Positions 6,495 to 39,800 of a stretch of DNA of 64,000 bases are shown here, piece by piece. The DNA is from Procambarus clarkii. Lineage: Eukaryota; Arthropoda; Malacostraca; Decapoda; Cambaridae. The first letter of the stretch is position 1, and every line of letters starts with the position of its first letter. The DNA lies in assembly GCF_040958095.1 (NCBI RefSeq), contig NC_091195.1:22137865-22201864 (forward strand). Reading direction: 5' to 3'. Both the position numbers and the translations under genes were made by a program. The notes below the pieces were generated by a model. The model saw only the letters and a list, made by a program, of their open reading frames with translations. It did no database searches and was not told where the DNA came from.

Positions 6495-6857
6495 TCACGA
6501 TGGAAGAGGGACACGTGCACAAATGGAGCTCCAACCAGTACCTACTGTGTATTCCCAGCTTGTGCCTAATGGACAAGATGGCGATATTCCAAGTCTGCGT
6601 GCAATCACTCCCTGTACTGTTCCCTTTTCTGTGACATAGGAGTCCAACACTGCCCACAGAGATCCGTCGGCACCAACACTAAAACTCGCGATATTTCCAC
6701 ATACCCACTCCCAGCTGGTTCCTTCTGGGAAGAGGGGTAGGACATTTGTCCGACGGTAAAGAGAACCGTCTCGGTCCAAGCCCCACACTGTTCCAGCACC
6801 AGCACTAACTTCTACAAGTGGCTGTCCTGGTGAATCAATGTTGACCCAGTCTGTACC
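6495..6857 (-). CDS. TECPR1: TECPR1 exon w18: last exon, final tectonin repeats and stop
   Basis: Encodes GTDWVNIDSPGQ, VWGLDRDGSLYRRTNV, GTSWEWVCGNIASFSVG, LWAVLDSY, RRLGISP and GTSWEYTVGTGW, then ends SICARVPLPS with TGA at 6495-6497. It matches the human C-terminal blades but lacks the roughly 30-residue Ser/Pro-rich human tail. The join to the previous exon needs no missing exon. Confidence 0.93.
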   Translation of the reverse strand, partial: GTDWVNIDSPGQPLVEVSAGAGTVWGLDRDGSLYRRTNVLPLFPEGTSWEWVCGNIASFSVGADGSLWAVLDSYVTEKGTVQGVIARRLGISPSCPLGTSWEYTVGTGWSSICARVPLPS

Positions 6858-9800: not shown

Positions 9801-12800
9801 TCCGAGTCGCTTTTAATTATATGGATAGTGAAATACTAAAGAAACTACGGGTGGTTTTCTGGACTTTTGTGAAACCAAAATTGAAATATGCAGCAGTTGT
9901 ATGGTACCCGGTCGGCCGAGCGGACAGCACGCTGGACTTGTGATCCTGTGGTCCTGGGTTCGATCCCAGGCGCCGGCGAGAAACATTGGGCAGAGTTTCT
10001 TTCACCCTATGCCCCTGTTACCTAGCAGTAAAATAGGTACCTGGGTGTTAGTCAGCTGTCACGGGCTAAAGCCCCGAAATCATCTCAAGATAACCTCAAG
10101 AAGATACTCATATCTCAAGAAGCACATCAATAAACTGGAAAAGGTGCAGCGGCATGCTACAAAATAGCTCCTGGAACTGAAAAATAAGTTACAAAGAAAG
10201 GCTAGAGGTACAAAATATGCCAAAGCTATAAGATAGAAGAAAAAGAAATGATATGATCACCACTTACAAAATAATAACAGGAATTGACCAAATTGACAAG
10301 GAGGAATTCCTAAAACCAGCAACTTCAAGAACAAGAGATCACAGATTCAAGCTAAGAAAACAAGGTACCAAAAAATATTAGAAAGTTTTCTTTTGAAGAG
10401 TGGTAGATGGTTGGAACAAGTTAAGTGAGGTGATAGAGGAAACCAAAAACATCAGTAGTTACAAAGCGTTATATGACAAAAAGAATGGTGGGAAGACTGG
10501 ACACCACAAGCATAGCTCTCATCCTGTAACTACACTTAGGTAATTACTGTTGGGTGAACAAAGGCATTAGGTGAAAGGAAATATGCCCAACTATTTGTAC
10601 TTCTTCTGGGGATAAAACCCATGATCCACAGAGTACGAGTCAAGGCTATGAACCCCACGTGGTGTTGTACATCCCAAACCTGCCGACTCACCTGTGGAGT
10701 CTTCTTCGTTATGCCAAGCCTCAGATGTGCTCGGCCATCTTTGCTCACAGCCCACACCCCACAGCCGTCCACACCAGCACACACGCTGCACATGGGACAC
10801 TCTGCTGGTACCAGTACCCACTTCTCCCCCTCGTGTTTGGATTCCGTCACACCTTGGCGGATCACAACTTCACCCGTGACACTCACGCCCCACACTGGTA
10901 TTGTGCCATCCTCAGCATACTCTGGCTATGGTGAAAAAGATAAAATATTGATTAATCTTCCATGATTTTGTGAAATGAGTATATTCCTACATTTAATGAC
11001 GGGCATGTACTGTACTTAAAGAATTACTATAAATGTAGTAATATAATTACTGTATTAGATACAGTATCTGCATGGATAAAAATGTGCATTACTGGCTTTA
11101 AACAACTGCATAATTTTGCAAACTACTCTTCTGTCATAAAGCAACTTACAGAACAACTTACAGAACCAAGCCAGGTAAATTACAAAAAAACAAGCCATGC
11201 AATTTATAGAAACAAGTCAAGTAACTTATGGTATCAAGCCATGCAACTTACAGAAACTGAGACATGAACAAGTGCCACCTTCTCCATCTGTGACCAGGGA
11301 CCCGACGTCGAGACTCGGCACTTTCTCACCCAGCGGCGGCGACGCACCAGGTCTGTCACGTAGCGGTGGCCATGGTAACTAAGGGGGAAATCTGTGGCAT
11401 ATTGCCACCCTTCACGATCGACTCCTCCTGGGGTGTGATAGTCCACGCACCACTCGCTCGTCTGTTGGCACCCACGCTCAAGTTAGAATTAATTGAATTT
11501 CTTTTTCATCATTCTCCGTATTTGCACTTCAACAGTTCATATATATTCCTTATTTAAAACGTCTTTGGTCATTATAGGCATTATAATATTGAAGAGATGT
11601 TTTATGGTGTATTTTGAAGGTTTTTTGCTTTGTGGATTTATGTCCCTACTATACCCTGTACAAATATTGCACATCTCACCTCACTAACACCAACTGTAAC
11701 CCACACATTAATACTTTTTCACCCTATTTTCCTGTGCAGTGGATTCCTGTTCCTTTCGATCCAGTAAGTGATCAGATGCAATGTAAACAAAGGATTAACA
11801 AGAAATTTATACTAAGGTCACTAGAAAGGTCTAGGCTAAAGTGATGATGAAATCGATCTACTGTACTGGAACAGCCTTATAGAAAACAAGTGTGGGTATC
11901 TGCCTCCTTTGGCATCATTCATCTGATGACTTTCTGCTCTCGGATTGCCATGAAGAATAATATTTAGGAAGTCTTGATTAACCTGGAACACAGACAGGTT
12001 ATACTGCCATTCTGATTTTGACCTTTTTGATAATTATTTGATGACAGAAAGGAAGCTTCATCTACATCCCATCTCAATCAGGTAAAAGCAATAGCGGCCA
12101 TCCATAGTTTTAAAATCTTGTGACTGTGGACTGCTGTAGGAACTAAAGTCCAATTAGCCAGAAAAGAAGTTATGGCTAGAGTCCAATGCCACAATGGGAG
12201 GTCCTAGGTGGAGACCACTTAACCGAGAACAAACCACCAGTGTGCTGTTGGAAAACAGATGGAGCCCCCCCTAGGCAGAGCCATGAACTGGAGAACAATC
12301 CAGACTGTTGCAGTTTTTTGGGGGACGTGTAAATGCAACAAAGTTAGAGACCCGCTGCTCCATGTAATTACCTAAGTGTAGTTACAGGATGAGAGCTATG
12401 CTCATGGTGTCCCGTCTTCTCAGCACTCTTTGTCATATAACGCTTTGAAACTACTGACGGTCTTGGCCTCCACCACCTTCTCACTTAACTTGTTCCAACC
12501 GTCTACCACTCTATTTGCGAAAGTGAATTTTCTTATATTTCTTCGGCATCTGTGTTTAGCTAGTTTATATCTATGACCTCTTGTTCTTAAAGTGCCAGGT
12601 CTCAGGAAATCTTCCCTATCGATTTTATCAATTCCTGTTACTATTTTGTATGTAGTGATCATATCACCTCTTTTTCTTCTGTCTTCCAGTTTTGGCATAT
12701 TTAATGCCTCTAACCTCTCCTCGTAGCTCTTGTCCTTCAGTTCTGGGAGCCACTTAGTAGCATGTCTTTGCACCTTTTCCAGTTTGTTGATGTGCTTCTT

Positions 12801-15800: not shown

Positions 15801-18800
15801 ATACCCAGAAAGCAGCCCGTAGCAACTGTCTAACTCCCAGGTATCTATTTACTGATAGGTGAACAGGGACATCAGCGTAAAACTGTCCCATTTGTTTCCG
15901 CCTTCGCCGAGGATCGAACTCGGAACCTTAAGACTACGAATCCCGAGCTCTGTTCACTCAGCCGTCAGGCCCCATGATAATATTTATCATGATGATATTT
16001 TGATACTGGTTATGATAACATTTTATTTATTTTATTTTTATATACAAGAGTTCTTACATCCTTGTAAAGCCACTAGCACGCATAGCGTTTCAGGCAGATC
16101 CAGCACAAGTATGACTAACAATATCACATTTGATTAACCAATAATGATGGCTCTAATATTATTTATAATTACCACTACAACCCAACAGCATTAAGAGTAT
16201 TAATATTATTTAACTACTTTTATCGATTGCTGTCTTTTGTATTTATTAAATAATGTATCCCATTGACTTTTCACATTAAAACCAATATACTGTACAGTAA
16301 ACCTGGAATGTTACTTGCATTAATGTTACAAGCTCTCAAGTCAAGCCTGGCCTCGAGCCAGGCTTGGAGTGTAGAAGAACTCCTAGAACCCCATCAAGCA
16401 GGTGTTATTTTACCCATGATAAAAGCAAGATATTCCTCATACACCTCACCCAAGACCAATGACGGGACTGCAATCTGATGGTCTCCTTTGCACGGTGGTG
16501 ACGTCCTGTCTGGTCGCTCCAAGTGTGGCGGTCAGTAGGAAGTCCTCGGTGGGTGAAGCCAGTCACCGGGTTCCAGCGCTGATTCTCCCACACGTACATG
16601 TGCCGCACATCGCTCATAATCTGCACTCCTGTGTCATTACTACTGGCTGTGGGAGGATACATCCCTTTAATTGACCCAACATGATACATGCTGATTTGTA
16701 AACTAGAGGGTGTGCCTCAGTCTCCATTGTTAAGTCATAACAAGAGTGCTAGTTCGTGTGGAGTAAATTCTTTTATTAATAATGATTGCCCTGAATAGAT
16801 CATCTAATAACAATTATTAAAACCGAGTTAAAATATTACAGTAGATACACGTTAGTCTAACTGCATAAGCAATTGCAAATAGGATATGCAGAGATCAACT
16901 GGAAATAACTGATGAACTAATTATGGATAATTATTTATGGATGCAACCCACAATAGTTGGCTAGGTCCCAGGTACTTATATACTACTAGGTGAACAGTCG
17001 CATTACGTGTAAAGAAATGTGCCCCGATATCTCATCGTCTGGGAATTGTACCTGGGACGGTTGTGAACCAACCGCAGTGGACAGTGCATTACAGCAGCCC
17101 AGCCTCTCCAGAGCTGCCAATGTCGGTAAACTGACGTACTAAATTCCCCAAACCTAACCTAATTGAAGATCCATGAAAAGAAAATTGTACATCACCTCAA
17201 TTTTGCAAGCCACTATGACTTATTACATCAGTTTTTGCCCTCGGGGGGGATTTATACGTCAAAATGCACCATACTATTCGAAAGGACGGGTTGATCACAG
17301 ATACGTGAAGCAACTATATTAATGAACAGCAGTCCTAAAGAAAACCATCCTGTTAGATGGTAGCAAATTAATTTGATATAAATATGACAAATGCCTCACT
17401 TTTATAAAGTCCTCCACCTGTAGCTCCCGTGTAGGTGTAAACATGGAAGTCATGAGATATGCCCCAGGTTACTCCACCAGCTCCACTCTCCACACACTTC
17501 AAGTGTCCGCCCAGGCCTTGCCAGTACCATTCACTCAACTGACGCTCTCCCTGTGATAACATTATCTGCGATAAATATTCAGCAAATGGTCAGATTAATC
17601 ATGGACAAACCATTAATTATCTACCAGAAAACTTGCAAAAAATAATTGATACACTTCTTTAGAAATCAGTTCAATATAATGATTCTTAACATTAAATCTA
17701 TAGACATATACTGGTACTGAAGGTGGTGTACGCACAGCTCCATGGTTGTAGGTCACTGCGTCAACAGTGATGCCTCCTCTCACCACCAAGTGTGTGATTT
17801 TTGCAAATGAAAAACGATGCTTGAAGCTACACCAAAATTTATCGTTTATGGAGATCTGAAACAAGCATGTTATTTTAAAATGATTCTGGATTCTCAGTCC
17901 ACACTCCACAAACTCATATTATTTCAGAGGGGTATATTCATAGTGCTGTGTAAGTAGTATAATACACTATATATAGTACAGTATATTCATAGCCAAGTAC
18001 CTGCTTCTTCACTAATTGTAATGGTCTGAATTAATGTGAATATTCTGTAACTTAAAGTTATCATATTCTTCCAGTTTTTACAATTAAGTAATAGATATTT
18101 ATACTTTAATAGAAGAGCTAACCTTGAAGTCATTGTCGTCACAGACGACCGACACTTCACAGTGAACACCGGGAGACAATCCTGTCAGGTCCTCGATCAC
18201 TTCACTACCCCAGATGCCCTTCTTCTTACTATTAAGCACACTGTTCTGAAATATACACAATAAGAGTCAAAATTCAAGTTCACTATCAAAAACCAAGTTT
18301 ATAAAGTAATGAAGAACCATTTTCTGGTGGGCCCTCAGGAGCCCACCAAACATGATGAAGGTAAAGCTAAGACTTAGGATTATGTACGAAGCCTCCGAGA
18401 TCCGCCCTCACTTCCCGGGAGCCAGGATGAGAATGTGGCTCTCTTTACGAGGCAAGGAGAAGTTGGGGGGGGGGGGTAATGGGCAAACATATGAACTTCT
18501 CCCAAACATAAAATAACTGACGTTGCAGTTAAGAATGAGGAGGGTCTTGTAGTACAGATGGATTCATTCTCGACTCAGAATTGGGGATCCCGGGTTCCCT
18601 TACCCAGGCTGGAAAGAAATGGTTGGGCATGTTTCCTTTCACCTGGTGCCTCTGTTCACCTAATCTACCAAGGCATCAGCTCTTGTGTGGTTGCATGCTG
18701 GGAAGGGTCAGTAATTCAACACTGGGGGACCTCGGTACAAGTGTAGAGTATATATACATATCCCTTACTGTACACACAGGCTTCCTGTCCCAGACGAAAA

Positions 18801-21800
18801 TGAATTAAAAGTGAGCGTGAGAAAGATGATCTCGAAGGTGAGATTTCTAAATGATGGACAGACCCTAAACCTCTCTGACGCAAGAAGTTTATTGCAATGT
18901 CTGGAGGCTTATGAGAACAAATATTTATAAATGCCTTACTTAGCCAAATAAAGGAAGGGAAATAAAAGTCCTGAACAACAGGCTAAATTCTAACTGAGAT
19001 GGACTCCAAAAAAAGAGCTAAACAATCCAAAACTTTGGGAGCTACTGGAGAATACCTCCCAAAAGATGACATCTGCGACAAGGAGGAAACAAGTAATGAA
19101 CAGGGCGAGCCTAACAGTCCGGTAAGAAACCGGAACAAAGTTACACAGTATTAACTAATTACCTAAGTGTAGTTACAAGGCGAGAGCAATGCTCAAGGAG
19201 TCGTCGTCCCAGTACTCATGGTCATGTGACGTGTTGAAATTATTAATGGTTCTGGTGATGCTGTCAAGTCCCCCCATCATCCATCCAGCTCCCCCCCACT
19301 ATCCATCCATCCATCCATCTGTCTGTCTAGCCCAGTGAAGAACCTTTCCTATCCACATTAGCCAAAGGCCACCCCTCCACCTTCAGAAAAATCTTAAGAC
19401 ACAGCTGATACATCAATAATTCTTCACTAACCTTCTCAAAAAATCTTGGATTAATGTGGAGTGCAATATTAGCATCGACCCCTCTTGATGTCTGGAGATT
19501 AATGTGGAACCTTGGAGAGCGGGGGACAAACGTCATTACACATCAGTAATAGAAAAACAAATATTAAAACATTTAGTAAGACAGATCAACAATTTTTGAA
19601 AACATGTTCAGTTAGTCGAGTAACTAAATTTCCATTTGAATAATTTAAAAAACGGAATTTTTCACCCTACGCACCATTATTCTGCAGCCTGCACCCTACA
19701 CCACCATTCTGCACCCTACACCACCATTCTGCATCCTACACCCTACACCACCATTCTGCAGCCTGCACCCTACACCACCATTCTGCAGCCTGCACCCTAC
19801 ACCACCATTCTGCAGCCTGCACCCTACACCACCATTCTGCAGCCTGCACCCTACACCACCATTCTGCAGCCTGCACCCTACACCACCATTCTGCAGCCTG
19901 CACCCTACACCACCATTCTGCAGCCTGCACCCTACACCACCATTCTGCAGCCTGCACCCTACACCACCATTCTGCAGCCTGCACCCTACACCACTATTTT
20001 TCAGCCTGCATCCTCCACCACTATTCTTCAGCCTGCATCCTACACTGCTATTCTTCAGCCTGCATCCTACACTGCTATTCTTCAGCCTGAATCCTACACT
20101 GCTATTCTTCAGCCTGCATCCTACACCACTTTTCTTCAGCCTGTATCCTACACCACTATTCTTCAGCCTGCATCCTCCACCACTATTCTTCAGCCTGCAT
20201 CCTACACCACCATTCTGCAGCCTGCACCCTACACCACCATTCTGCACCCTACACCACCATTCTGCAGCCTGCACCCTACACCACCATTCTGCAGCCTGCA
20301 CCCTACACCACCATTTTGCAGCCTGCATCCTACACCATTTTTCAGCCTGCATCCTCCACCACTATTCTTCAGCCTGCATCCTACACTGCTATTCTTCAGC
20401 CTGCATCCTACACTGCTATTCTTCAGCCTGAATCCTACACTGCTTTTCTTCAGCCTGCATCCTACACCACTTTTCTTCAGCCTGTATCCTACACCACTAT
20501 TCTTCAGCCTGCATCCTCCACCACTATTCTTCAGCCTGCATCCTACACCACCATTCTTCAGCCTGCATCCTCCACCACTATTCTTCAGCCTGCATCCTAC
20601 ACTGCTATTCTTCAGCCTGCATCCTACACTGCTATTCTTCAGCCTGAATCCTACACTGCTATTCTTCAGCCTGCATTCTACACCGCTATTCTTCAGCCTG
20701 CATCCTACACCACTTTTCTTCAGCCTGTATCCTACACCACTATTCTTCAGCCTGCATCCTCCACCACTATTCTTCAGCCTGCATCCTACACTGCTATTCT
20801 TCAGCCTGCATTCTACACTGCTATTCTTCAGCCTGCATCCTACACTGCTATTCTTCAGCCTGCATCCTACACCACTATTCTTCAGCCTGCATCCTACACC
20901 ACTTTTCTTCAGCCTGTATCCTACACCACTATTCTTCAGCCTGCATCCTACACTGCTATTCTTCAGCCTGCATCCTACATCACCATTCTTCAACCTGCAT
21001 CTTACACCACTATTCTTCAGCCTGCATCCTACACTACCATTCTGCAGCCTGCATCCTACACTACTATTCTTCAGCCTGCATCCTACACTACCATTGTTCA
21101 GCCTGCATCCTACACCACTATTCTTCAGCCTGCATCCTACACCGCTATTCTTCAGCCTGCATCCTACACTGCTATTATTCAGCCTGCATCCTACACTGCT
21201 ATTCTTCAGCCTGCATCCTACACTGCTATTCTTCAGCCTGCATCCTACACCGCTATTCTTCAGCCTGCATCTTACACCGCTATTCTTCAGCCTGCATCCT
21301 ACACTGCTATTCTTCAGCCTGCATCCTACACTGCTATTCTTCAGCCTGCATCCTACACTGCTATTCTTCAGCCTGCATCCTACACTGCTATTCTTCAGCC
21401 TGCATCCTACACCACTAATCTTCAGCCTGCATCCTACACCACTATTCTTCAGCCAGAATCCTACACTGCTATTCTTCAGCCTGCATCCTACACCACTATT
21501 CTTCAGCCTGCAAACTGCACCACTATTCTTCAGCCTGCATCCTACACTGCTATTCTTCAGCCTGCATCCTACACCACTAATCTTCAGCCTGCAAACTGCA
21601 CCACTATTCTGCAGCCTGCATCCTACACTACCATTCTGCACCCTACATCACCATTCTTCAACCTGCATCTTACACCACTATTCTTCAGCCTGCATCCTAC
21701 ACTACCATTCTTCAGCCTGCATCCTACACCACTATTCTGCAGCCTGCATCCTACACCGTTATTCTTCAGCCTGCATTCTACACCACTATTCTTCAGCCTG

Positions 21801-24800
21801 CATTCTACACCACTATTCTGCAGCCTGCATCCTACACCGTTATTCTTCAGCCTGCATTCTACACCACTATTCTTCAGCCTGCATTCTACACCACTATTCT
21901 TCAGCCTGCATTCTACACCACTATTCTTCAGCCTGCATCCTACACTACCATTCTTCAGCCTGCATCCTACACCACTATTCTGCAGCCTGCATCCTAACAC
22001 CACAATTCTTCAGCCTGCATCCTACACCACCATTCTACAATAGTTCAATTCTCAAAATTCCTAAGTCCTGTACTATGTAACCATGCTGTTACCCCTTACT
22101 ATATTTCTTTTACTTGCCCAAAGCGCTGTGCGTGTTAGTGCCTTTATATCTTATACATGTTCTGTACCTGTTGATTAACAACCAATAACATGTTCCTATG
22201 TCCATTTATAATTATAACTTTTTTTTTATTATAATCATATAGCACAAACAGGCTCATTTTTTTACACATTTTCTCGGACATTTACTACTGGATTCAATAT
22301 AAACAAAGCATATAGATGATGATTACAAATGGCTACAAATAAGAAACAAGGGGCAGAAGATCCTACTGGTCAGCACTGCTGTGAATCTTGCCCGAGACAG
22401 AGATGAAACAACCTGGTCGGAATCCTCGATTCAAGAGAAAGGTTATTGGTGTAGCTCCTGTCCCTACAGGCAACTGCTGGTGCGCTGCCACCGACTCTGC
22501 ACGCAACTGTAAGTAAAAAAACCAGAGTTGAATGTAATGAAACACCATCTTCTGGGCGAGTCCCGGAGGCTCCCCCAAGCTTACCAGGCTGGTATGTATG
22601 TATGTATTAGACTGTGGCATCAGTCAATTTGAATGGAGTTCTTGCCTACCAGGGACCACAAGCCAGAACCTGGCCCCATCAGAGAGGCACGATAAACAAT
22701 GGCTTATAGAAACCCCCATGTGGTTGGAAACATTCCATGTCTGCCATTGACTGGGTTAGGCACCCAGAAGGGTAGGTGTCCCAAAACAAACACAACCTTG
22801 TTCAAAATTGCTACCGAAAGCCCAACTATCAAGCAGAGCTCCCCAATCTGAAAACAAGCATGACGTCACAACTGCCGCCGCACAGCTGTCTGCCCAGCTC
22901 CAACCTCCATGGGAGGGGGGAAGGGGGAGCCCTAGACCCCCCATGCTGGCCATCCGACCCCAGTTCAGAGGCTGAATATAAAAAAAAACAGCGTTGAATG
23001 TAATGAAACGTGTTACGGTGCCCTCTTCTATTTGCCTGCTTTAAGAGTCATATCAGCTTTCTCTACTGATTCTCTGAGATACAGAGAGTCTGTTGGTATA
23101 TTGGGGACTGACTAAAGAGCCTAAATCTGTACTCCCTTGAGCGCAGGCGGGAGAGATACATAATAATTTACACGTGAAAAATATTAGAGGGGCTGGTCCC
23201 AAACCTGCACACAGAAATAACATCACATGAGACCAGAAAACATGGCAAGATGTGCAGAATACCCCCGTCGAAAAGCAGAGGTGCAACAGGTACTCAGAGA
23301 GAACTCTATCAACATCAGAGGCCCGAGACTGTTCAACATGCTTCCACTACACATAAGGGGCATAACTGGCCTACCCCTCACAGTGTTCAAGAGAGAACTG
23401 GATAAGCACCTCCAAAGGATACCTGATCAACCAGGCTGTGACTCATACGTCAGGCTGCGAGCAGCCGCGTCCAACAGCCTGGTTGATCAGTCCATCAACC
23501 AGGAGGCCTGGTCGACGACCGGGCTGCGGGGACGCTAAGCCCCGGAAGCACCTCAAGGTAACCTCAAGGTAGGTATATGCGGCGACCAGATCGTCGCCAG
23601 ATAAGGGAGAAATTTACATTATAAGTTTGTAGGTAAGGGGAAAGTGACGCCCTGATACAAATGTAATGGTACCCCCCTACCTGCAGATCCGCTATTTTGT
23701 GGAGGACGCTAGCCGAGTGCGGATTGGGTGACTTAGGTCACGGGCGACCAATTAGAGCCCGCCGTGACGTCACAGAGTGCCCCTGGCGGCGCCAGTGGTG
23801 GTAGCGTCAGAGCTGGTCTGACTGCGAGAGGGAGAGGACATTTCTCGGTCAGCTCTCAAGGATTTGAGGCTCTACAAGCCTTACTCAGTGGATTAAACTA
23901 GCCATCGCAGCCCACCATTGTTTTTGAAGACCCTGTGCTTCCGGGAAGCAAGAAGAAACAAAGTTCATTGAGCAGAGAAGTGCCAAAACTTGAAGAGTCG
24001 GTCGGCGACGATGCTAGAGGGGCGCCGCCTGACGCTGGAGGGGTCTGGAAGGTGTGGCGGGCAGGCCTAGCTGTGACCGGGTCACGTTCACTGAGGATTT
24101 TGGAGGGATGACACCATTCCTAGGGCAAGGAGCAACGCCTTGGTATGGATGAGTGTGTGCATACAGTGATTAGCTCAGTACCCACTGGTGAACCAGGATT
24201 GGGATATCTGAAACATTGGGAGTGGTTTGGCGATGACGCGAAGGCTTCACGACACCTGAGGACTTGTGGAACATTCCTGGATCGTCAAGGACCGACTCAG
24301 GAAGCGTGAGAACCTCACACCATCGAGGGACAGGCGTCGTGAGCCAGGAATGTAAAGGTAGATCAATTTCCTTCCCATTACCCCTTGTTTGAGTAGGCTA
24401 GATAGGCCACGATATTTACCTATGTATGTTGCAGTATAACACTGATACATTAGTAGTAGGATAGGCTGCAGGGCGGCTTGTGTTCAGGACTGTTGAAGAG
24501 GACAGTGTGTTTGGACGACGGAGCAGTTGAAGAGGTGGTAGCCGACGTCGACGAAGAGGCCCCTATGTGTGAGAGAGTGGCTTCCTTTTTAATCTGCCCA
24601 GTTGGAGGAGTTGTTGGAGGTCGTGAAAGAAGAGTTGCTGACGATCTCCAGTTTTATTATTCTCATTTTTCCATTCCTGTATTGTTTGTAAATGTATATG
24701 TGATCTTGTAGTTTATGTCAGTAAATTCACACATTTTATCATTGTGTTTAAGTGTGCCTCCATAATAATGTCTATGAGCATACACGAGGGTTATCATAGT

Positions 24801-27800
24801 ACCACCTAGTGAACACCACGTTTTCTACAAAAGGTCTTAGTGGCTGGAGAGTAGTAAAGCAGCACAGACTTATGTACAAGTGTACCCTAGGCTACCTGTC
24901 CAGTATCAGAGCCGGAATGGTGGCAACACTTTGGCAACAAGCAATGTAGTGGCTGGGGAGAGGTAAAGCCACACAGACTTTTATGGAAGTGTACCTTGGG
25001 CTGACACACCAGTGTCAACTCTATAGGAGTAGCAACACTTTGGCAACAAGCAGTATAGAATACACCCACTGAACTGCATTGCTGAGGTGCAGATATACCA
25101 ACCCAGTTGGCGACCTTGTTAAAAGAAGGTAGGGAAGGCAGGTGGGAAAGGAATTCCTGCAAACTTTTTGTCTGGCAGGCAAGACTCAGGGGAAGTTATT
25201 GATAAAAGGTAAGCCTGGGTCTTCCTTCACTTCTCCACGGGTCTAGGCCGGAATTGCCAACAGCAGTTTCCCCGTGGTTGACTGAAGGGCTCCCAGGGTG
25301 AATCAGTGGCACCCCCTACATTGGTGGGAGCAAAAACCTGCGGTGGTGGGTATTACTGGTCCCCTCCTGTGGGACCAAGCGATTCCGGTGAATCCCAAGA
25401 GTGAGAGGGGCTGAGTATTCTGCCTTCTGAGCCCCTAGCAGCCAATTGCTAGCAGAGCCCCAGCCCACTCCCCCGTGACAAACGCCATTTTCTGGGCGAG
25501 TCCCGGAGGCTCCCCGGAGCTATCCAGGCTGAATGGATATGTATAACTTTCTGGCATCAGTCAATGCATGGAGTTCTTGCCTACCAGGGATCATGAGCCA
25601 GATCCTGGCCCCCCTCTAGAGAGGCATGAGGAGCAATGGCCTATAGAGACCTCCCTTATGATAGGGAGCATTCTATGTCTGCCATCGACCGGGATAGGCA
25701 CTTGTTTTTTAGTCCTTGTATGTTGGCAAAGATGAATGAGATTACTCTATTAGGGATAGTTTGACTGGGAGACTTTTTTGGCAAGCCCATTATGCATGTA
25801 CATATTGAGTTTGTTCTGACCAGTGATGATTGTTGTAGGGCAGTTGCCTGTCGTAGTTGTAATTCCTTGTTGGTGTGTAATTGTATCTGTAATTCTGGTA
25901 AGCAAGTTGGTCTGGCATCCCTATATGGTCTACAGGGCCTTTGATGACCCTGTAGATATGTATGCAGATGATGGTCCTATAGATATAAGAGTAAAATCTG
26001 AAGCTAAAGACACAGACGTTAGATGTGTAAAGTACACAACTGTTGGAGAAATATTTAGGCTATGTGTAATTTAGGCAATGTAACATTGGTTAGGTATAGT
26101 ATCACACAGGATATATATATTTATATATAGTATTAAGGACAGGAGACACACACGAGATACTACAGCACTTAGGATCTAAACAAAATTTGAGACGTATTAA
26201 CACTCGCCTCTTCTTCAGTAGTAGAGCAGTCATGTAGAAAGACATCTCCCTGCGAGGTCACAGCCCACACCATGTAAAACGACGGAGAGCCAGTCAAGCC
26301 CCGAAACTGATTACAAGCTGCAAATCGGCATCATAATCAAAACGAGGATATAATGAACTGCTGACATGCTAGTAAACCAGCAAGCTCCAGCAATCTCAAA
26401 GTAATTACAGTTAAACCTAACAATAAAGCAGTTATATACATGTATACATATATTTGATCTGAAGTGTGCATAAATATATATATATATATAATAGCTATAT
26501 GGTTTGATCCACCTACCTGTTGAGATATGATTGAGCCAGTCCTCGGCATCTGTCTCGGTGGAGAAGCAGAGCGTCTTTGGCCTCAGGGGTTCATCAGGAT
26601 GGTACATTGCCACAAGAGACCGACCCACAGCAGACTCCACGCACATGACACTTGTCAGAATCGTACTGCATGAAATTTCTTCCTGTAATGTGAAATCAAT
26701 TTCTTGTGACTATGTTATGTTCTGGTTGTCAGTGTCTATCTTACGTACCCACCTACCCACCCACCCACTACCAACCCTCCACCTACCTGCACAGCAACCC
26801 TTCACCCACCTGCACAGTACCGATCTACCCACCCCTTACCAAGTATTGTATTATTTATATTTACCTAAGTTTACCTGAGGGCCACTAATACTAGTAGTCT
26901 TGATGAGGACAGGAACCTGGCATCTTGTCAAAGGTTCTCCCCATTTTCCCTCATGATCTTTTCCAGCTGTATTTTAAAACCCAGCAGTTTTGGCATTTAC
27001 AGCTTTGGTGGGTAGGCAATTCCACAGGTTTACAACCCTATGGGATGAAAAAGCATCTCCAGTTTCCTGTCCTACATTATGGTTTGTTGAGCTTAACCCT
27101 GTTGCTCCTCGTTCGTGTTACATCTGACCTTTTGAAGAAATTGACCAGATCGACATCCTCCAAATGGTTCAGTATTTTAAAGGTTTCAATGAGATCCACC
27201 CTGTCATGCCTGGTTTGTAGTCTTGTTAGCCCAGTGGCCTTCAACCATTTCGGATTCATGAGATCAAGCTCAAGTACGTTTATTTGAGAGAATAAAAACA
27301 TCTCAAAGGGATAGAGTAGCTCTGGTATGCTTTTTTTGTTGCCCGGTGTTGCACCTTCTCCAGAGCAGTTATGGCTTTCTGAAGATGAGGTCTCCCTGCC
27401 TGGATGCAATAATCCAGGTGGGGGCGCACCAGAGACTTATACAATTGAACGACTACTTTCCTTTCCTTGAAGGTAAAGGTACGCTTGATTATTGTCAGGG
27501 TTTGGTTCACTTTTCTTACTTCCGCTCCCACGTGTTGTGCAACTTTTAGTGAATGATGGATTCTGACTCCAAGGTCCTTTTCTTCATCTATCTGTTGTAA
27601 GGTAATACTGTCAATTTGGTAGTTGTGACTAGGATTGTGTTATGCCCCACATGCAAGGTCTTGCATTTATCAAAATTAAAAAGCATTTGCCAGTCATCTG
27701 ACCATTTGAGAGGTTCATGTAGATCTCTTTGTAAGATCTCAATATCACTTTCACTTCCCACTTTACCACAGATTTTAGTGTCATCTGCAAATTTGATAAT

Positions 27801-30800
27801 GTGGTTTGTAATATTTTCATCTATGCCATTGATGTATATGACAAAGAGGGGGTTGGTCCCAAAATGGACCCCCTATGGCACCCTCCCCTTAGCACATTTT
27901 CCCAGTCAGATTCTTTCCCATTTAGCACAACCCTTTGTTTCCTATGTTTTAACCATTGTTTTATCCATTCCAGTATTTTCCTATTTATTCCATGTGCCTG
28001 TAATTTCCTTGCCAGTCTCTCATATGATACAGTGTCAAAAGCTTTAGCAAAGTCCATGTGAGCTACATCTACCGGAAGTCGATGTACAGGAGTTAGATAC
28101 ATTTTTTTTACATAAAGCAGTACACCTCCTGCTCTTGTTGCTGTCCTTTCTGAACAGTGGATGATACCCTGGGGGGGGGGGAGGGGGGGGGAGGAGGAAT
28201 TCCCCTTCAATAGTGTCCTGTCATCCCCATGTTTCACTTATGCCAATGATGTCTGGAGTCTCGGCCTCAGCATGTGCACACAATGCATCAAATTTATTCA
28301 CCAAGCTTCTGGCACTAGTGTAGAAGCACTTTAAATTTCTTTCGCTGTTCGGCCGAGCGGACAGCATGCTGGACTTGTGATCCTGTGGTCCCGTGGTTGA
28401 TTCTAGGCGCTTGCGAGAAACAATGGGCAGAGTTTCTTTCACCGTATGCCCCTGTTGCCTAGCAGTAAAATAGGTACCTGGGTATTAGTCAGCTGTCACG
28501 GGCTGCTTCCTGGGGGTGGAGGCCTGGTCAAGGACCGGGCCGCGGGGACACTAAAAAAGCCCCGAAATCATCTCAAGATGACCTCAAGATCCTATTGGGC
28601 TGTGAGATACCACCTAGATTCTGAACATAATTATTCTGTTTGTTGTCACTCCAGCTTTGTGCCTGTCCGTCTTCTCAGATATACAGGGTTAGTTCTGCCT
28701 GGCTGGGTGGAGGACTGCGTTCTCTCCTCCATCTACTATTTTGATCACCCGTCTTCTCCTGATTACTAGCTTTGAATCTGTTTGCTTCTAGGTTCGTTAA
28801 TTCCTTAAACTTTCCTCTTAGCACACTTTTTTTGTGCTATTCAACTGTGTAGTATGGGGGAGATATAGACTTCGTTATACCCTTCAAGATTTTTTAGGTT
28901 ATGTACATTGGTTAGTATCTTCCTTCTGTGTTCAAAGTTTACAAGGGTTATGTGTACATATACTGTACTGTGGGCATTCATCTAGCACTGTTTAGAAAAT
29001 ACATAGTTGCCCCTTTGTTTATTTAGTGGTTATATTAATAATAATAATAATAATAATTTTTATTTAGGTAAGGTACATACATAAAGAGAGATTTTACAGT
29101 TTGTTGGGTTAATAGATAGAGCTAGTACATACAATGCCTAAAGCCACTATTATGCAAAGCGTTTCGGGCAGAGAATATCTGAATACAGTTTATGTATTTC
29201 ATTTACAAAAAAACTATATATAAATTTAATTTTAATGACAGTACAGTATTTAATTTATTACCCCAACAGCACCATATTTCACATAACTATAATGCAAGTA
29301 AGACATGCACTCTATTCCTTATATATTGTAAATAACTTGCATCTATATTTATATATTTGATATACTGTATACAGTATTTATGAAAGTGCTACTGCAGGAA
29401 ACATTTGGTTATTTGCTAAACATCAGTACAGAATATAATTACTGTATTGTAAGAGAATGGTAATCCGAATTCTTGCGATCCAGATGAATTTGCGTTCAGT
29501 GTTTTAGAGTAAATGGCGGCAGTCATTAAGGAAATCATTAAAATGCACAGGTAAACAGTGGGAGTATCTGAATCATGGTACAAAAATATTTAGAATTTGT
29601 TCATTTTAAACATTCCTGGCAAGAAATTCGTCCAAGTTGAATGTTCGGTTAACTCGCTCGTATGAGGGCGAGTCTCGTATCATTCGGATTGCTGAACTCA
29701 GACAAAACAGTACAAATAATGAACTCTGCCTCTATAATCCCACATTTAGTAACCAATTTAATCAAAACTGAATTACTGTACTAATATCCACCAAAACCTC
29801 TGGTAAATAATAGGTACCTACCACATGTGGAGATCCAAGAGAGTAGCGTACAATGAGCGTGGCATCCTGCACTTGTGACCTGCGAGAGCCGACCATGACG
29901 AGCTCTAATGATGCTGGCACCCACTGTCCCCCTGCCCACCAGCGGCACTGGCCAGATATTACCCATGATGAGCCTTCAACTGCTTCCTCATAACTAGAGA
30001 AACACACAAGCAATGTAATAAACTTTATAAGGTCACATTGCAAGTATCGTCACATTTACGATACTTGCAAGCACATAGGAGGAGAAGGGAAATGTTCACA
30101 TCTAATAGTATAAATGGAAGAGGACACTTACAAGCTCACTGGAGGAGGAAAATGTTCACAGCTAACAGAGAGAATATAGTACTTACAAGCACATAAGAGG
30201 AGGAAAATTTTCACTCCGAACTGTACCGATGAAAGAGGATACTTATAAGCACACGAGACGAGGAAAACGTTCACACCTAAGAGTACAGATGAAAGAGAAT
30301 ACAGTACTTGCAAGCACATAAGAGGAGGAAAATGTTCACACCTAACAGAATAGATGGAAGAGGATACTTACAAGCATATAGGAGCAGGAGAATGTTCACA
30401 ACTAACAGTACAGATGGAAGAATATAGTACTTACAAGCACACAGGAGGAGGAAAATATTCACAACTAACAGTACAGATGGAAGAATATAGTACTTACAAG
30501 CACACAGGAGGAGGAAAATATTCACAACTAACAGTACAGATGGAAGAATATAGTACTTACAAGCACACAGGAGGAGGAAAATATTCACACCTAACAGTAC
30601 AGATGGAAGAGGATACTTGCAAGCAAATTGGAGGAGAATGTTCATAACTAACTGTACAGATGAGGAGGAAATTTAAAAGTATATTGGTGTAAGAGGATAT
30701 TTTCAAGAATTGTACACGGGAGGAGGAGGAGGAGGACATTTAAAGAACACATAATAAAGTATTCACAATAATACATATTAAGGAGGACATTCTTAAGCAC

Positions 30801-33800
30801 ACAGATGGAAGAGGATATTTATTAGCATGCAGATGGAAGGAATGTAAGTCTAGAATGGATGATGGTAATTGCAAATATTGAGCCAGAGAAAGATATTTAC
30901 AGGTATAGATAAGGAAGCAAATATTTACAAGTATCGAAGTGGAGGAAGCTATTACAAGTGGAGGAAGCTATTACAAGTATCGAAGTGGAGGAAGCTATTA
31001 CAAGTATCGAAGTGGAGGAAGCTATTACAAGTATCAAAGTGGAGGAAGCTATTTACAAGTACAGAAGAGAGGTGGAGGAGGTTACAAGTACAGAACAGAG
31101 GTGGAGGAGGTTACAAGTACAAAACAGAGGTGAAGGAGGATATTTACAATCTCAAAAGCAGTAGTCTTCACTAAACTAATACAATAATTACACATAGCAC
31201 AGCCATGTCAAGTGCATTGTTTTCTTCTATGGCTCACATACCCAGTAAAAGGCTTGATCTCGGTGTTATACCGACTGCGTAAACTCTGCAACACATTAAC
31301 TCTCCAGGGCTCTGTAGACAGCACTGGGGACCCTTCACTCATGAACCTTTAGACAAGAGTTACAAATGACATTGTATTATTCATAGAAACAATAAATATA
31401 CGCTACGTACATATGTTGCAGGAAAACATCCATCATTGAACAGAATGAAATGCCTTGTTCTGGTGGGCTGCCTCAGTGGTTCCCCTGAGTCAGCTGCCTG
31501 TTGCGCTCCAAACCTAGCATGCCCCACCAAGTCCTTGTAAACTTGGAGGTAACCTGGGGCCAGATTCACGAAAGCACTTACGCAAGCACTTCCGAACGTG
31601 TACAACTTTCCTCAATCTTTGACGGCTTTGGTTACATTTATTAAACAGTTTACAAGCATGAAAACTTCCCAATCAACTGTTGTTATTGTTATAAACAGCC
31701 TAAAGGTGCTTCGGTGCTCATTAACTGTTTAATAATTGTAAACAATGCCGCCAAAGATTGAGAAAAGATGTACAGGTTCGTAATTGTTTGCGTAAGTGCT
31801 TTCGTGAATCTGGCCCCAGGCAGCTAGCTCAGGGAGCTACTGAGTGAAGCCTTCCAATTTGCAAAATATACCTTGTTTACGTACATACCAAAGATTTGTG
31901 TGTCTCAGGTACTATACAAGTCAATACAGCTATATAAGCATACATTGTCTAAACATGTCTCTTACTCAAGTATTGAAATACCTGTACTGTCTAAGCTCAC
32001 TTATCTGAATTATATGCGAGTGCATATAATTAACGAAATCATCCGTGTCACGACAATGAATTCAGTTAAGTTTCTCAAAGGGTTGTAAACCCTGGAACCG
32101 CCAACCCGCCGAAGCCGTAAATGCTAAAACTCTGCTGGGGTTTAAAATACAACTGGAAAGGGTCATCTAGTCAAATGGGGGGGACCGTTGACAAGCTGCT
32201 GGCTTCCTGTCCTTATCGAGGCCACTAGTATTAGTGGCCCTCAGGTAAATGCCGGTAAATATGGAAAGGTCCTCCCACCAGATAAGCCAGACATAAGCAT
32301 AAGCAGAATTTTTACCGAAGAAGTCCAAAGGTGAAAATATTCAATTTTGTTGTACTACAACCAACAATTTGAATTTCCACACACACTGTAATTTAAAAAT
32401 ATACCAGTACAGTACTGTAATTTAAATCAGAAGCTTCAGCTTACCTTATAGTTCGTCTTCTTGATTGGTGCTACATACGGTACTGTACAGTATCTTCAAA
32501 TCAATAATCAATAATTCTTGAAAATTTACATAACCTAACTTAACACAACAGTAAAATTACAGTACAGTGCTTAAGCTTGGCAAGGTCAACTTCGACTGCC
32601 AGCTGCTGAAGCATAACTGGCTGAAGGCTTTCTTGGCTTTCTGGCGAGGTTTCATTGGTTGAAGGTTCTTGTCTTGTGGGTTGCATGGGTTGAACGGCCT
32701 TGGCTTGTCGTTATTACCAAATAAGAATTGAGTTTTGCTTGCCTCCTGTATTCATCTCTCTTTGGGTCGCCTCAAGTATGGCACTGATACACGAGTAAAC
32801 TGTATTTATGCCCGAAACGCTTTGCGTAATAGTGGCTTTAGGCATTGTATGTACTAGCTATACCTATAAGTCAAACAATCCTTGTAAATATTTATTGTAT
32901 GTATGTACCTTACCTAAATAAAATTGTATTGTATTGTATTGTATTTGATTGTCTGTGGTGTTGTTAGCACAACCTTCCTCCTCTTAATAACCCCAGGACC
33001 ATTCCTGCTGCTGTCAGGCAGAGTCTTGACAAAAAATGTTCAAAGTTATTATGAAAATTCAAAGGATACTTAAAAATGTTTCACTAATGGCGCAGCATTG
33101 TGGTATAATGTGAGAGTCGAGAGCACGTGACCTGGATGGATCCACTTGGGGCAGGCAAGCAGGCATGTTACATAGGCTGTCAGGTGGAAAAATAACCCTA
33201 AATTTTTAGCAGGAAAGTATTGTCTGTATACTGTACATGGTTTTTAAGAAATTTGGATTTGTTACAATTTGATATCCTTATTTTTTACTGTTATGAATTG
33301 CTTTAACATATTTCTTGGTTATTCTATACATTAAAGATCATAGGCCCCCCCATCCTTAGATAGTCCCCCCCTACCCTGAAGTCAGCCACCCCCAAACACC
33401 TCCCATTACCCCATGCCTCAAGCGACTGCTGTACGGGATTATTACAGTATGGCCCGATGCCTGTGTGGTATCCCAGCAAGATCTCCGGTTATCAGAATAG
33501 CAATTCAGATATGGTGATGTTTTGCCAGAAAAATATTTGGCAGCAATTTTCAACAGATAACTCAAATGTTTGGATCAGTGGGCTTCGGATAAGCGAGCTC
33601 ATACAGTACAGTACTAATAATAGTTGAAAAGGATAAATTTAAAATGTTGATTGTGTGATAGAGGATGGATGTTGTTGAGAATGGATTATAATAAAAGTGT
33701 CAGATTAAAGAGTACAAGACAAAAGAAAGAAGAGGCAGTGAGAATGTACATGCTGTTAGCCAGACAAGCATGCCTATTAACCCTTAAGTCGCTAAGGGCT

Positions 33801-36800: not shown

Positions 36801-39800
36801 AGATCGGACCCAGAGGTTGCATCCATTGGACCAATGAGCTCCAGTGGAGTTTTCCAGGGCCCTTAGGCTGACTGCTAAGGGAAGTCCAGGCATGGTACCG
36901 CTAACCAGGTGACCCAAACTACCGCGAGATCATGTAAACCTGAACCCCTGCGACGTGTACAACTACGGGGGCCTAGCAGGGGACCACCAAAAAACAGAGG
37001 TGGAACTACGACCATGGAACAGACCCCCCCACCAGCCAAAATCTAAAAAGAAAAGAAAACCCCCACAAAAGTACAACATCTCCAGGAGGAACAGAACCAG
37101 CCACTATGATAATAGTAGACAAGCTGCACAGTACGTTGCACCCCTACCAGCGATGATACTATCTCCAACCCAGGGCCAAACAGTGGCTAAGAAAACCCCT
37201 GCTGACCCCAAGGGTGGGCAAACACCATGCAGCAAAAGATCCCTGTAGAGGTAGTTCCCTAACGACTTGTGGAAGGCAACCTCAAGACGCAATGGCAGTA
37301 CTTTCAGGTACCTGGAGAAGGGAGCCCTAGGCGCATGCAGCCCCAGTACTTCTGATATTACTCCCGGCTCACATACCACAACACAGCAGAGCAGCACTGC
37401 CAGGGCACAGCACTGCACAGAGACCAGAGTCGGAGTCGAATGACCGCCACGCAACACATCAGCCTTAGAACTGCGGGTGGATAGCCGGCATGGGGTCTGG
37501 GACTCCCGTTCCCCCTCCCAGGGAGGGGGGGGGAGCTGCGCAGAAAGGTGGCGCTGCGGTGGGTGTGACATCAAGCGCATTTGCTCGTTTTCAGATTGGG
37601 GAGTTCTGCTTAGCAGTTCAGTTTTCGGTAGCATTGTTTCAACAGTTGGGGTCTGATTTGGGGCGCTTACATTTCTGGGTGCCTAACTCGAATGACGGCA
37701 GACATAGAATGCTTCCAACCACATGGGAGGTTTCTATTGATCATTGCTCCTCATGCCTGAGAGGGCCAGGTTCTGACTCATAGTCCCCGGTAGACTAGAA
37801 CGCCATTCAAATTGACTGATGCCATGGTCTAATACACACATATCAGCTCCAGGGAAACTCTCCACAGAAATAAATTTACTATTGGATGAGTCAGTACCCC
37901 CTTTCCTGCTAAATTGCCTTGGTGAATAGCTATTTTTTTTAGTTGAAGGTTTTTTTAATACCTCAAATATGAATACATAATTAAGAGTCGACCAGAAGCT
38001 GAATGTTCCGTTCCCACTAACTGTACTATAATAATAAATACAGCTATTCAACTTATGATGAAACAAAAACAACAACAACCCTGCTCGTGCCACTTGGTTA
38101 ATCAGCAAACATAAAATATAAACAAGAACATTTTATTAAAGATACACACAACAAAAGGGGTGCATTACGTATATATGGCTCACTAGCTGTGTGCATGCCA
38201 GGCATTATCAAAACCTATTAATATCCTGCAACCCTTTACAAACAATAAAACACTATATATTAAAGCACTAAGACTATATGCTGCAAAATATTAAAATAGT
38301 AACAATCATTCATATAAAATCAATATATCAAAGAGTATAACAAACTTGATGTAAGAGCTACACAAGAATTCTTCATAATATATACAGTACTAGCAACAGC
38401 AAACGTTGATTTCTCAAGCATAGGTTAAAACAGACAAAGAGACTCACCACTTTGGCATGTTATTAGCTCGTATCCAGCATCCTCCCCCAGTCACCCACAA
38501 CCACAGGTGTTCTGCTTCTAGTGGAAGCAGTTTGTAGTTTGGGCCTTCCTCTCTTGGGACCACAAGCGATCCCCGACTCAGACTTGCTTCACTGCCGGCA
38601 CTACTGCTGCTAGCATGGCGGAGGCGTGACTCGCTCCACTCGAGGCTTGCATGTGTGTTCGGCTGCTGGACACAGGCCGAGACATGTCCCTGATCCTCTT
38701 TTCTCCTAGTGTCACTCACTGCGTTATCCCTTTGGCATTTTATATGAAAATCTTCTCGATTCCTGATGTTCGTCTTGTCATCAGCTTGGCTTGCTGTATT
38801 ATCACTCTCTATTTCAGGAGAACTATTTGGGCTTGCTAACACAGCATCATTGGGCATATCACGACTATTGATGGCTTGGAGGCTGCTGATGAAATCTCCA
38901 CCTTGATCAGACACAACTGATGAGCTGAGAGAGCTGGGATAGTCTTCGGGGTACTGGATTTTGATGCTCGACTCCCTACTGTCATCGTGATGCAGCGTGT
39001 CATTACTTTCATGCTGAACAACAGCTTCTTGTTCTTTTCCATGTTCTTCCTGAATAGGGCTTCTCTCATTCTCTCCGAGAGCCAATATATCGCTACTTTC
39101 CTTGATTGTTCCTGCAGGCTGGGCTCCCTGAAACTGAAGATTATTTAGTACTTTCTCTGCACTAGCCAAGTTAATGTCACCTTCTGCTCCTAAAATGGAT
39201 TTAGTGATGGAATTAGGACTGTCCTCCTGTCCTTTGGCTCCTCTTTCAGTAAAAGTGTCATTAGTTATGCTACTGGGCATTTTTACAGTGGGGTGAGGAA
39301 GTGGGCTTGAACTTGGGCTGGGGTTCACACTTGGAGGCGGGGTTTCGACTGCACCAATGGGAAGGCAGATGGATCGCCAGGTTCGTCCAGCAAGCTCTGT
39401 TTCTGACACGCCTGTTCGTAGCACAATGGTGTGGTCCTCGTTACTTACGCCCCACACCTGAGAGATTGAAAAATCACAAATAAACAAACCAGCATTGAAT
39501 GTAATGAAATGCCTCCACCACATCAGCAGGAGAACCCAAACACAAAAAGACCAACAAGAATAAAACCCTGGGCTTGCCCTCACAACACAGCATCATCACG
39601 GAGTGAACTAAAAGAAAGAACTACCCAAGGGCTACCCTGACAGAAAATGATACGAATTGAACCCCCAAAAAATGCCCTTTGCCACAACAAAAACCTATTG
39701 TGAAGAGGCCCCAGAACCCAACCACCACTGGAAAATGGAAAAGAAAATTAGTTACGGCCCAAGGTCCCCGTAACAGTTGAACTCGACAAAACAACCACCG

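What the first reader, a model, noticed from the sequence alone, without database searches (positions are those of the whole stretch)
17712..22506. Galectin domain spliced into a beta-propeller blade of TECPR1
Four exons (w10-w13) encode a complete galectin fold with FHINL, ALHINPRF and GIWGSE. They lie between the two halves of one tectonin blade, VWAVTSQGDVFLHD and EWYWQGLGGHLK. Human TECPR1 joins these halves directly, as far as I recall. TECPR1 and galectins are separate sensors of damaged endolysosomes in vertebrates. A single arthropod protein carrying both could read exposed sphingomyelin and exposed lumenal glycans together. I have a vague memory that insect TECPR annotations also list a galectin domain, so it may be an arthropod trait rather than unique.
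Basis: partly seen in the sequence, partly recalled or inferred. Interest (0 to 1): 0.85.

Follow-up and report, generated by a model that had tools for sequence, protein, structure and literature searches.

The report
Crayfish TECPR1 with built-in galectin
In this crayfish gene the membrane-damage protein TECPR1 carries a built-in sugar-binding galectin domain that vertebrate TECPR1 lacks and that insects and other crustaceans share, so one molecule may read both the lipid and the sugar signs of a burst lysosome.

Summary
On the minus strand, exons w10-w13 (22506-17736) encode a galectin domain, in frame, inside TECPR1. The 18 TECPR1 exons in the window join to residues 137-1423 of the Procambarus clarkii RefSeq protein, letter for letter. 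The galectin replaces a link of 14-24 residues in a blade of the second propeller. It is not a crayfish novelty: of 267 TECPR1-type proteins recovered, 100 carry it and form one clade (support 1.0 with the insert columns removed). All named carriers are pancrustaceans. The 167 without it include chelicerates, myriapods, echinoderms, a brachiopod, a nemertean and vertebrates. So it was probably gained once, near the pancrustacean stem. Databases already list the domain. Six core sugar-contact residues are identical in 99 of 99 copies with letters there, though crayfish and insect galectin domains share only about 30%. The ATG5-binding helix and most of the sphingomyelin site are conserved. Most likely reading: a damage receptor that couples glycan recognition, in cis, to Atg8 lipidation. 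Glycan binding, recruitment and any AND-type logic are inferred. Eight literature searches bearing on this showed no paper that describes the fusion; two of their listings were short extracts of long hit lists.

The parts
60303..60455 (-). TECPR1 exon, C-terminal part of N-terminal DysF (contains the equivalents of I142-W154)
   Evidence: exact join to P0001; aligns to 8p5p
55672..55764 (-). TECPR1 exon, first propeller
55281..55464 (-). TECPR1 exon, first propeller
48964..49217 (-). TECPR1 exon, first propeller
38448..39457 (-). TECPR1 exon, end of first propeller and long linker
31242..31346 (-). TECPR1 exon with the ATG5-interacting helix (AIR)
   Evidence: aligns to AIR peptide 4tq1_B, E 4.3e-4
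29822..29993 (-). TECPR1 exon, PH region (by homology)
   Evidence: no Pfam PH hit
26517..26682 (-). TECPR1 exon, PH region (by homology)
26208..26317 (-). w9: first half of the tectonin blade, ends at a GC donor
22367..22506 (-). w10: galectin, first part
19432..19510 (-). w11: galectin, HxNPR motif
18123..18245 (-). w12: galectin, VxN and WGxE motifs
17736..17855 (-). w13: galectin, last part
17400..17550 (-). w14: second half of the tectonin blade
16450..16646 (-). w15: C-terminal DysF
11252..11461 (-). w16: C-terminal DysF
10692..10925 (-). w17: second propeller
6495..6857 (-). w18: second propeller and stop codon

Best explanation
This is the crayfish TECPR1 gene. A galectin carbohydrate-recognition domain is an in-frame insertion in a loop of the first blade of the second propeller, probably gained once near the pancrustacean stem. 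Proposed mechanism: the cytosolic protein goes to damaged endolysosomes or ruptured phagosomes through its N-terminal DysF and PH region; when the membrane breaks open, the galectin binds beta-galactoside glycans of the lumen; the AIR helix brings ATG12-ATG5, and Atg8/LC3 is conjugated to the membrane. Shown here: architecture, reading frame, orthology, single clade, galectin fold in a model of the Daphnia orthologue, invariant sugar-contact residues, conserved ATG5 helix. Inferred: glycan binding, place in the cell, order of recruitment, and the link to Atg8 lipidation in crustaceans.
For: Exact splice model. Galectin by Pfam, PDB sequences and fold. H44, N46, R48, N61, W68, E71 identical in 99 of 99 copies with letters there (84 of 84 in the first set), while mean column conservation is 0.51; six of the eight columns at 95% or more in the first set are sugar contacts. 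AIR Trp kept in 83 of 83 carriers with a letter there; crayfish AIR matches 4tq1_B. N'DysF aligns without gaps to the human sphingomyelin-binding domain 8p5p. Insert in a single clade, support 1.0. Knockdown of the fly gene CG32226, listed as the TECPR1 orthologue, reduced autophagosome formation with two or more dsRNAs (PMC4334200, section 7). In ATG16L1-null mouse cells, TECPR1-dependent LC3 conjugation is reported to follow rupture and galectin-3 recruitment (PMC12128658, Discussion).
Against: No binding or localisation data. The crayfish has Ile where most galectins of this set have Arg or Lys at position 73 (72 R, 20 K of 99), although galectin-8 N-CRD also has Ile in that column. Deleting the C-terminal half of human TECPR1, the half that holds the insert site, did not stop recruitment to damaged lysosomes (PMC10481663, passages). 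Outside the sugar site the galectin is no more conserved than the PH region or the second propeller. K153 of the sphingomyelin site is changed in most carriers. One thrips model, P0058, lacks the middle of the domain.
Confidence: 0.6

Rival explanations
1. The galectin binds glycans but for another purpose: capture of sugar-coated microbes in the cytosol, or tethering of glycan-bearing membranes during autophagosome-lysosome fusion, without being a damage sensor.
For: Same sugar-site conservation. TECPR1 is described as a lysosomal tether for LC3C autophagosomes in mammals (PMC7293217, passages). A honey bee gene described as an apparent CG32226 orthologue and galectin-family gene was reported to appear up-regulated in Varroa-tolerant bees (PMC2447852, passage).
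Against: Conserved DysF tip and AIR point to the damage and lipidation role.
Confidence: 0.18
2. The galectin is a structural or protein-binding module that no longer binds sugar.
For: Fast divergence of the domain overall (28-33% identity between crayfish and Daphnia or three insects); Ile at position 73 in the crayfish.
Against: Six sugar-contact residues are identical in 99 of 99 copies, which a purely structural role would not predict.
Confidence: 0.15
3. Artefact: the galectin exons belong to a separate gene or are skipped in most transcripts.
For: w10-w13 are in phase 0 at both ends, so skipping would keep the frame.
Against: The same fusion at the same place occurs in 100 proteins. P0004 (1397 aa) and P0007 (1357 aa) come from contigs of at most 5,274 and 5,016 bases, far shorter than the crayfish gene, which suggests spliced transcripts (inference). 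A galectin-less isoform cannot be excluded: the protein collection is clustered and no RNA reads were available.
Confidence: 0.03

Closest known systems
Vertebrate TECPR1 (ATG12-ATG5-TECPR1 E3-like complex)
   Same: Two propellers, two DysF domains, AIR helix, PH region; orthologous along the chain
   Different: No galectin; 24 residues at the insertion site in the bovine protein P0208
Galectin-8 (damage lectin that acts with NDP52)
   Same: Best sequence and fold match to the insert; human galectin-8 detects lumenal glycans and triggers autophagy (PMC10476172, passages)
   Different: Free protein with two CRDs that recruits an adaptor in trans; here one CRD is fused to the ATG5-binding protein
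Insect TECPR1 orthologues (Drosophila CG32226, also named Pex23)
   Same: Same fusion in the insect proteins recovered, apart from a partial thrips model; the Drosophila protein itself was not among the named hits
   Different: Insect entries mostly have Q, not K/R, at the K153 site of N'DysF

Membership tests
TECPR1 | Tectonin propeller repeats in two halves | tested here: met
   PF06462 169.5 bits with 5 stretches, PF19193 130.4 bits with 3 stretches in P0001
TECPR1 | N-terminal DysF with sphingomyelin-site residues | tested here: met
   8p5p E 4.6e-43. W77, L88, I142, K152, W154 kept; R for K153; P for L89, as in 103 of 104 galectin-less proteins compared. Binding itself not tested
TECPR1 | ATG5-interacting helix (AIR) | tested here: met
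   4tq1_B E 4.3e-4; W, V, L, R at the spacing of the ATG16L1 motif
TECPR1 | PH domain | tested here: inconclusive
   Region aligns to recalled human sequence; no Pfam PH hit; strands plus helix there in the Daphnia model, not searched alone
Galectin | Galectin fold | tested here: met
Galectin | Canonical sugar-contact residues | tested here: met
   Seven of eight in the crayfish (H, N, R, V, N, W, E); eighth is Ile
Galectin | Binds beta-galactosides | not testable with these tools
   Needs protein
Peroxin 23 | Peroxisomal function, orthology to Yarrowia PEX23 | not tested
   A review doubts it for the fly protein and prefers TECPR1 (PMC3837297, passages)

The most novel reading that the evidence does not exclude
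Pancrustacean TECPR1 is a coincidence detector in one chain: lipid exposure (DysF) and glycan exposure (galectin) must both be read before ATG12-ATG5 conjugates Atg8, doing in cis what vertebrates seem to do with TECPR1 plus free galectin-3 or -8. Where sphingomyelin was replaced by ceramide phosphoethanolamine, the glycan arm may carry most of the sensing.
Probability: 0.3. Interest if true: 0.85.

Novelty: new variant of a known kind. Interest (0 to 1): 0.66.

Why it matters
Whether TECPR1 and galectin signals cooperate in mammals is open: one 2025 study suggests that TECPR1-driven LC3 conjugation may need rupture signals beyond sphingomyelin, such as galectin pathways (PMC12128658, Discussion). 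A fusion of the two, gained once and kept in the pancrustacean lineages sampled, hints that they belong together, and the fly gene CG32226 makes the question testable with point mutants. If it works as proposed, these animals have a cytosolic glycan-danger receptor wired straight to the Atg8 lipidation machinery.

Tried and rejected
Crayfish-only trait: rejected. Trait of all arthropods: not supported; scorpion, horseshoe crab, spiders, ticks, an oribatid mite, a millipede and a centipede lack it. Separate gene or artefact: judged very unlikely, see rivals. PH domain by Pfam: no hit. First DysF table kept only 18 galectin-bearing proteins because of a strict regex; replace it, except for L89. 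My first w9 and w14 borders differ from the RefSeq-consistent ones and were replaced. A count of galectin genes in this genome was not obtained (six unanswered family searches); one free galectin-like gene is known. The source of the galectin was not sought. Searches list 120 of 674 and 120 of 376 hits, so 554 and 256 hits were not seen. No named ostracod or collembolan was among the hits, so the base of the clade is open. Literature listings were partial: 25 of 49 papers, 15 of 438, 15 of 1,626.

Full report
Check of the observation. The gene runs on the minus strand. Exons w10 (22506-22367), w11 (19510-19432), w12 (18245-18123) and w13 (17855-17736) are each open in one frame and have AG acceptors and GT donors. 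To test the model I asked for AG acceptors and GT/GC donors within 9 nt of each estimated border and for agreement with the RefSeq protein of P. clarkii found by search (P0001). Exactly one chain of the 18 exons satisfies this; its 3864 nt translate to P0001 residues 137-1423 letter for letter. The window is therefore P. clarkii, or identical to it over this coding sequence. This fit uses the annotation and so confirms it rather than being independent of it. w9 ends at a GC donor (GAG|GCGAGT). The four galectin exons total 462 nt and are phase 0 at both ends.

Where it sits. Between two anchors (V874 and W1049 of P0001), 84 of 85 galectin-bearing proteins could be measured: median 184 residues, 159-196 except the thrips protein P0058 at 113. 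Of 126 without galectin, 125 could be measured: 14-24 residues. The insertion replaces one short loop.

Who has it. Three protein searches gave 268 distinct proteins; 101 match the galectin profile and 167 do not. One of the 101, P0096 from eel, holds six galectin domains and no tectonin domain and was set aside. In a FastTree of the other 267, built without the insert columns and rooted on the brachiopod P0150, the 100 carriers form one clade (support 1.0) with no galectin-less tip inside. Their sister is a group of 19 tips, 14 named (all chelicerates or myriapods) and 5 unnamed; the node joining the two has support 0.86. Named carriers are decapods, a stomatopod, an isopod, an amphipod, a krill, Daphnia, odonates and many other insects. 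P0051 bears a Tk gene label that I take, from memory, for a copepod. A pancrustacean TECPR1 without galectin should have shown up, because vertebrate ones scored 398-432 bits there. Searches list only the best 120 hits.

Does it look functional? H44, N46, R48, N61, W68 and E71 (galectin-1 numbers, recalled) are identical in 84 of 84 copies with letters there in the first set (85 domains) and 99 of 99 in the full set (100 domains). The copy without letters is P0058. Two further bee models, P0076 and P0038, have gaps or odd stretches elsewhere in the domain. V59 is V in 85, I in 11, A in 2, C in 1. Position 73 is R in 72, K in 20, H in 2 and F, I, T, C, V once each; the crayfish is the Ile, as is galectin-8 N-CRD. 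Six of the eight columns at 95% or more in the first set are sugar contacts (hypergeometric 7e-8; too small, because the sequences are related). Crayfish against Daphnia and three insects: galectin 28-33%, N'DysF 57-60%, C'DysF 52-60%, first propeller 40-47%, second propeller 32-39%, PH region 25-34%. So the domain drifts like the less constrained parts of the protein, but its sugar site does not drift. That is what selection for sugar binding would leave.

The rest of the machine. The crayfish AIR aligns to the solved TECPR1 AIR peptide (4tq1_B, E 4.3e-4; the next hits, Dicer, are weak). The ATG16L1 motif residues W13, I17, L21, R24 (PMC6769624, table passage) have counterparts W, V, L, R. 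Among carriers with a letter there, the Trp is kept in 83 of 83 and the Arg in 77 of 84. N'DysF aligns to 8p5p without a gap. Of the residues whose change to Ala abolished recruitment in human cells (W77, L88, L89, I142, K152, K153, W154; PMC10476172, passages), the crayfish keeps W77, L88, I142, K152 and W154, has R for K153 and P for L89; P is also found in 103 of 104 galectin-less proteins compared. Among carriers with letters, W77 is kept in 75 of 75 and W154 in 73 of 77; K153 is Q in 53 of 77 and K or R in 12. The K/R set is the decapods, the stomatopod, two unnamed proteins and one wasp; the named Q set is insects.

Literature. Eight of my ten full-text searches bear on the fusion. I saw listings, and passages or sections of a few papers. 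None that I saw describes a galectin domain in TECPR1; the library lacks most subscription papers, and three listings were cut. Three papers hold one part each: CG32226 as TECPR1 and a positive autophagy regulator (PMC4334200, section 7); CG32226 as Pex23, with doubt (PMC3837297, passages); an apparent CG32226 orthologue as a galectin-family gene (PMC2447852, passage). Protein databases already list PF00337 with the tectonin domains and name some entries 'Galectin domain-containing protein'. So the architecture is on record, although I found no account of it.

Mechanism. In mammals TECPR1 binds exposed sphingomyelin and recruits ATG5 (PMC10476172, passages) and arrives before galectin-3 (PMC10481663, passages). 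In ATG16L1-null cells its LC3 conjugation coincided with rupture and galectin-3 (PMC12128658, Discussion). A galectin in the same chain would tie lipidation to rupture directly; this step is inferred. Against it, the C-terminal half of human TECPR1 is not needed for recruitment (PMC10481663), so the insert may act after recruitment, or not in recruitment at all. Another use of sugar binding and a non-binding scaffold stay open.

Noticed in passing
19709-22036: A 27-bp minisatellite, 86.8 copies, 90% matches, fills most of the intron between w10 and w11; it is the source of the long false open frames there.
   Followed up: partly
42363-44192 (minus strand): Uninterrupted 610-codon frame with DDE_1, HTH_Tnp_Tc5 and CENP-B_N domains, a pogo/Tigger-like transposase by domain content, in an intron between TECPR1 exons.
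   Followed up: partly
12423-13469 (minus strand): Reverse transcriptase fragment (PF00078, 60.8 bits) in an intron; similar frames lie at 13681-14259 (by eye).
   Followed up: partly
60303-60455 and proteins: K153 of the N'DysF sphingomyelin site is K/R in decapods and the stomatopod but Q in most insects. It might track the swap of sphingomyelin for ceramide phosphoethanolamine, but Daphnia (A), an isopod (T) and a millipede (S) differ too.
   Followed up: partly
26202-26216: w9 ends at a GC-AG intron (GAG|GCGAGT) in the RefSeq-consistent model; a GT six bases downstream would also keep the frame.
   Followed up: yes
L001 (G000 contig C60:16520702-16520962): A free galectin-like gene on another contig of the same genome, read only roughly. 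A survey reports malacostracan galectins as single-copy apart from two isopods (PMC5437397, passages); whether it counted the TECPR1 galectin is not clear.
   Followed up: partly
P0096 (Anguilla anguilla, 883 aa): An eel protein with six galectin domains in a row by my profile.
   Followed up: no
P0008 and P0079: TECPR1 entries joined to ankyrin repeats (Petrolisthes) and to a PCI domain (Strigamia); perhaps fused gene models.
   Followed up: no
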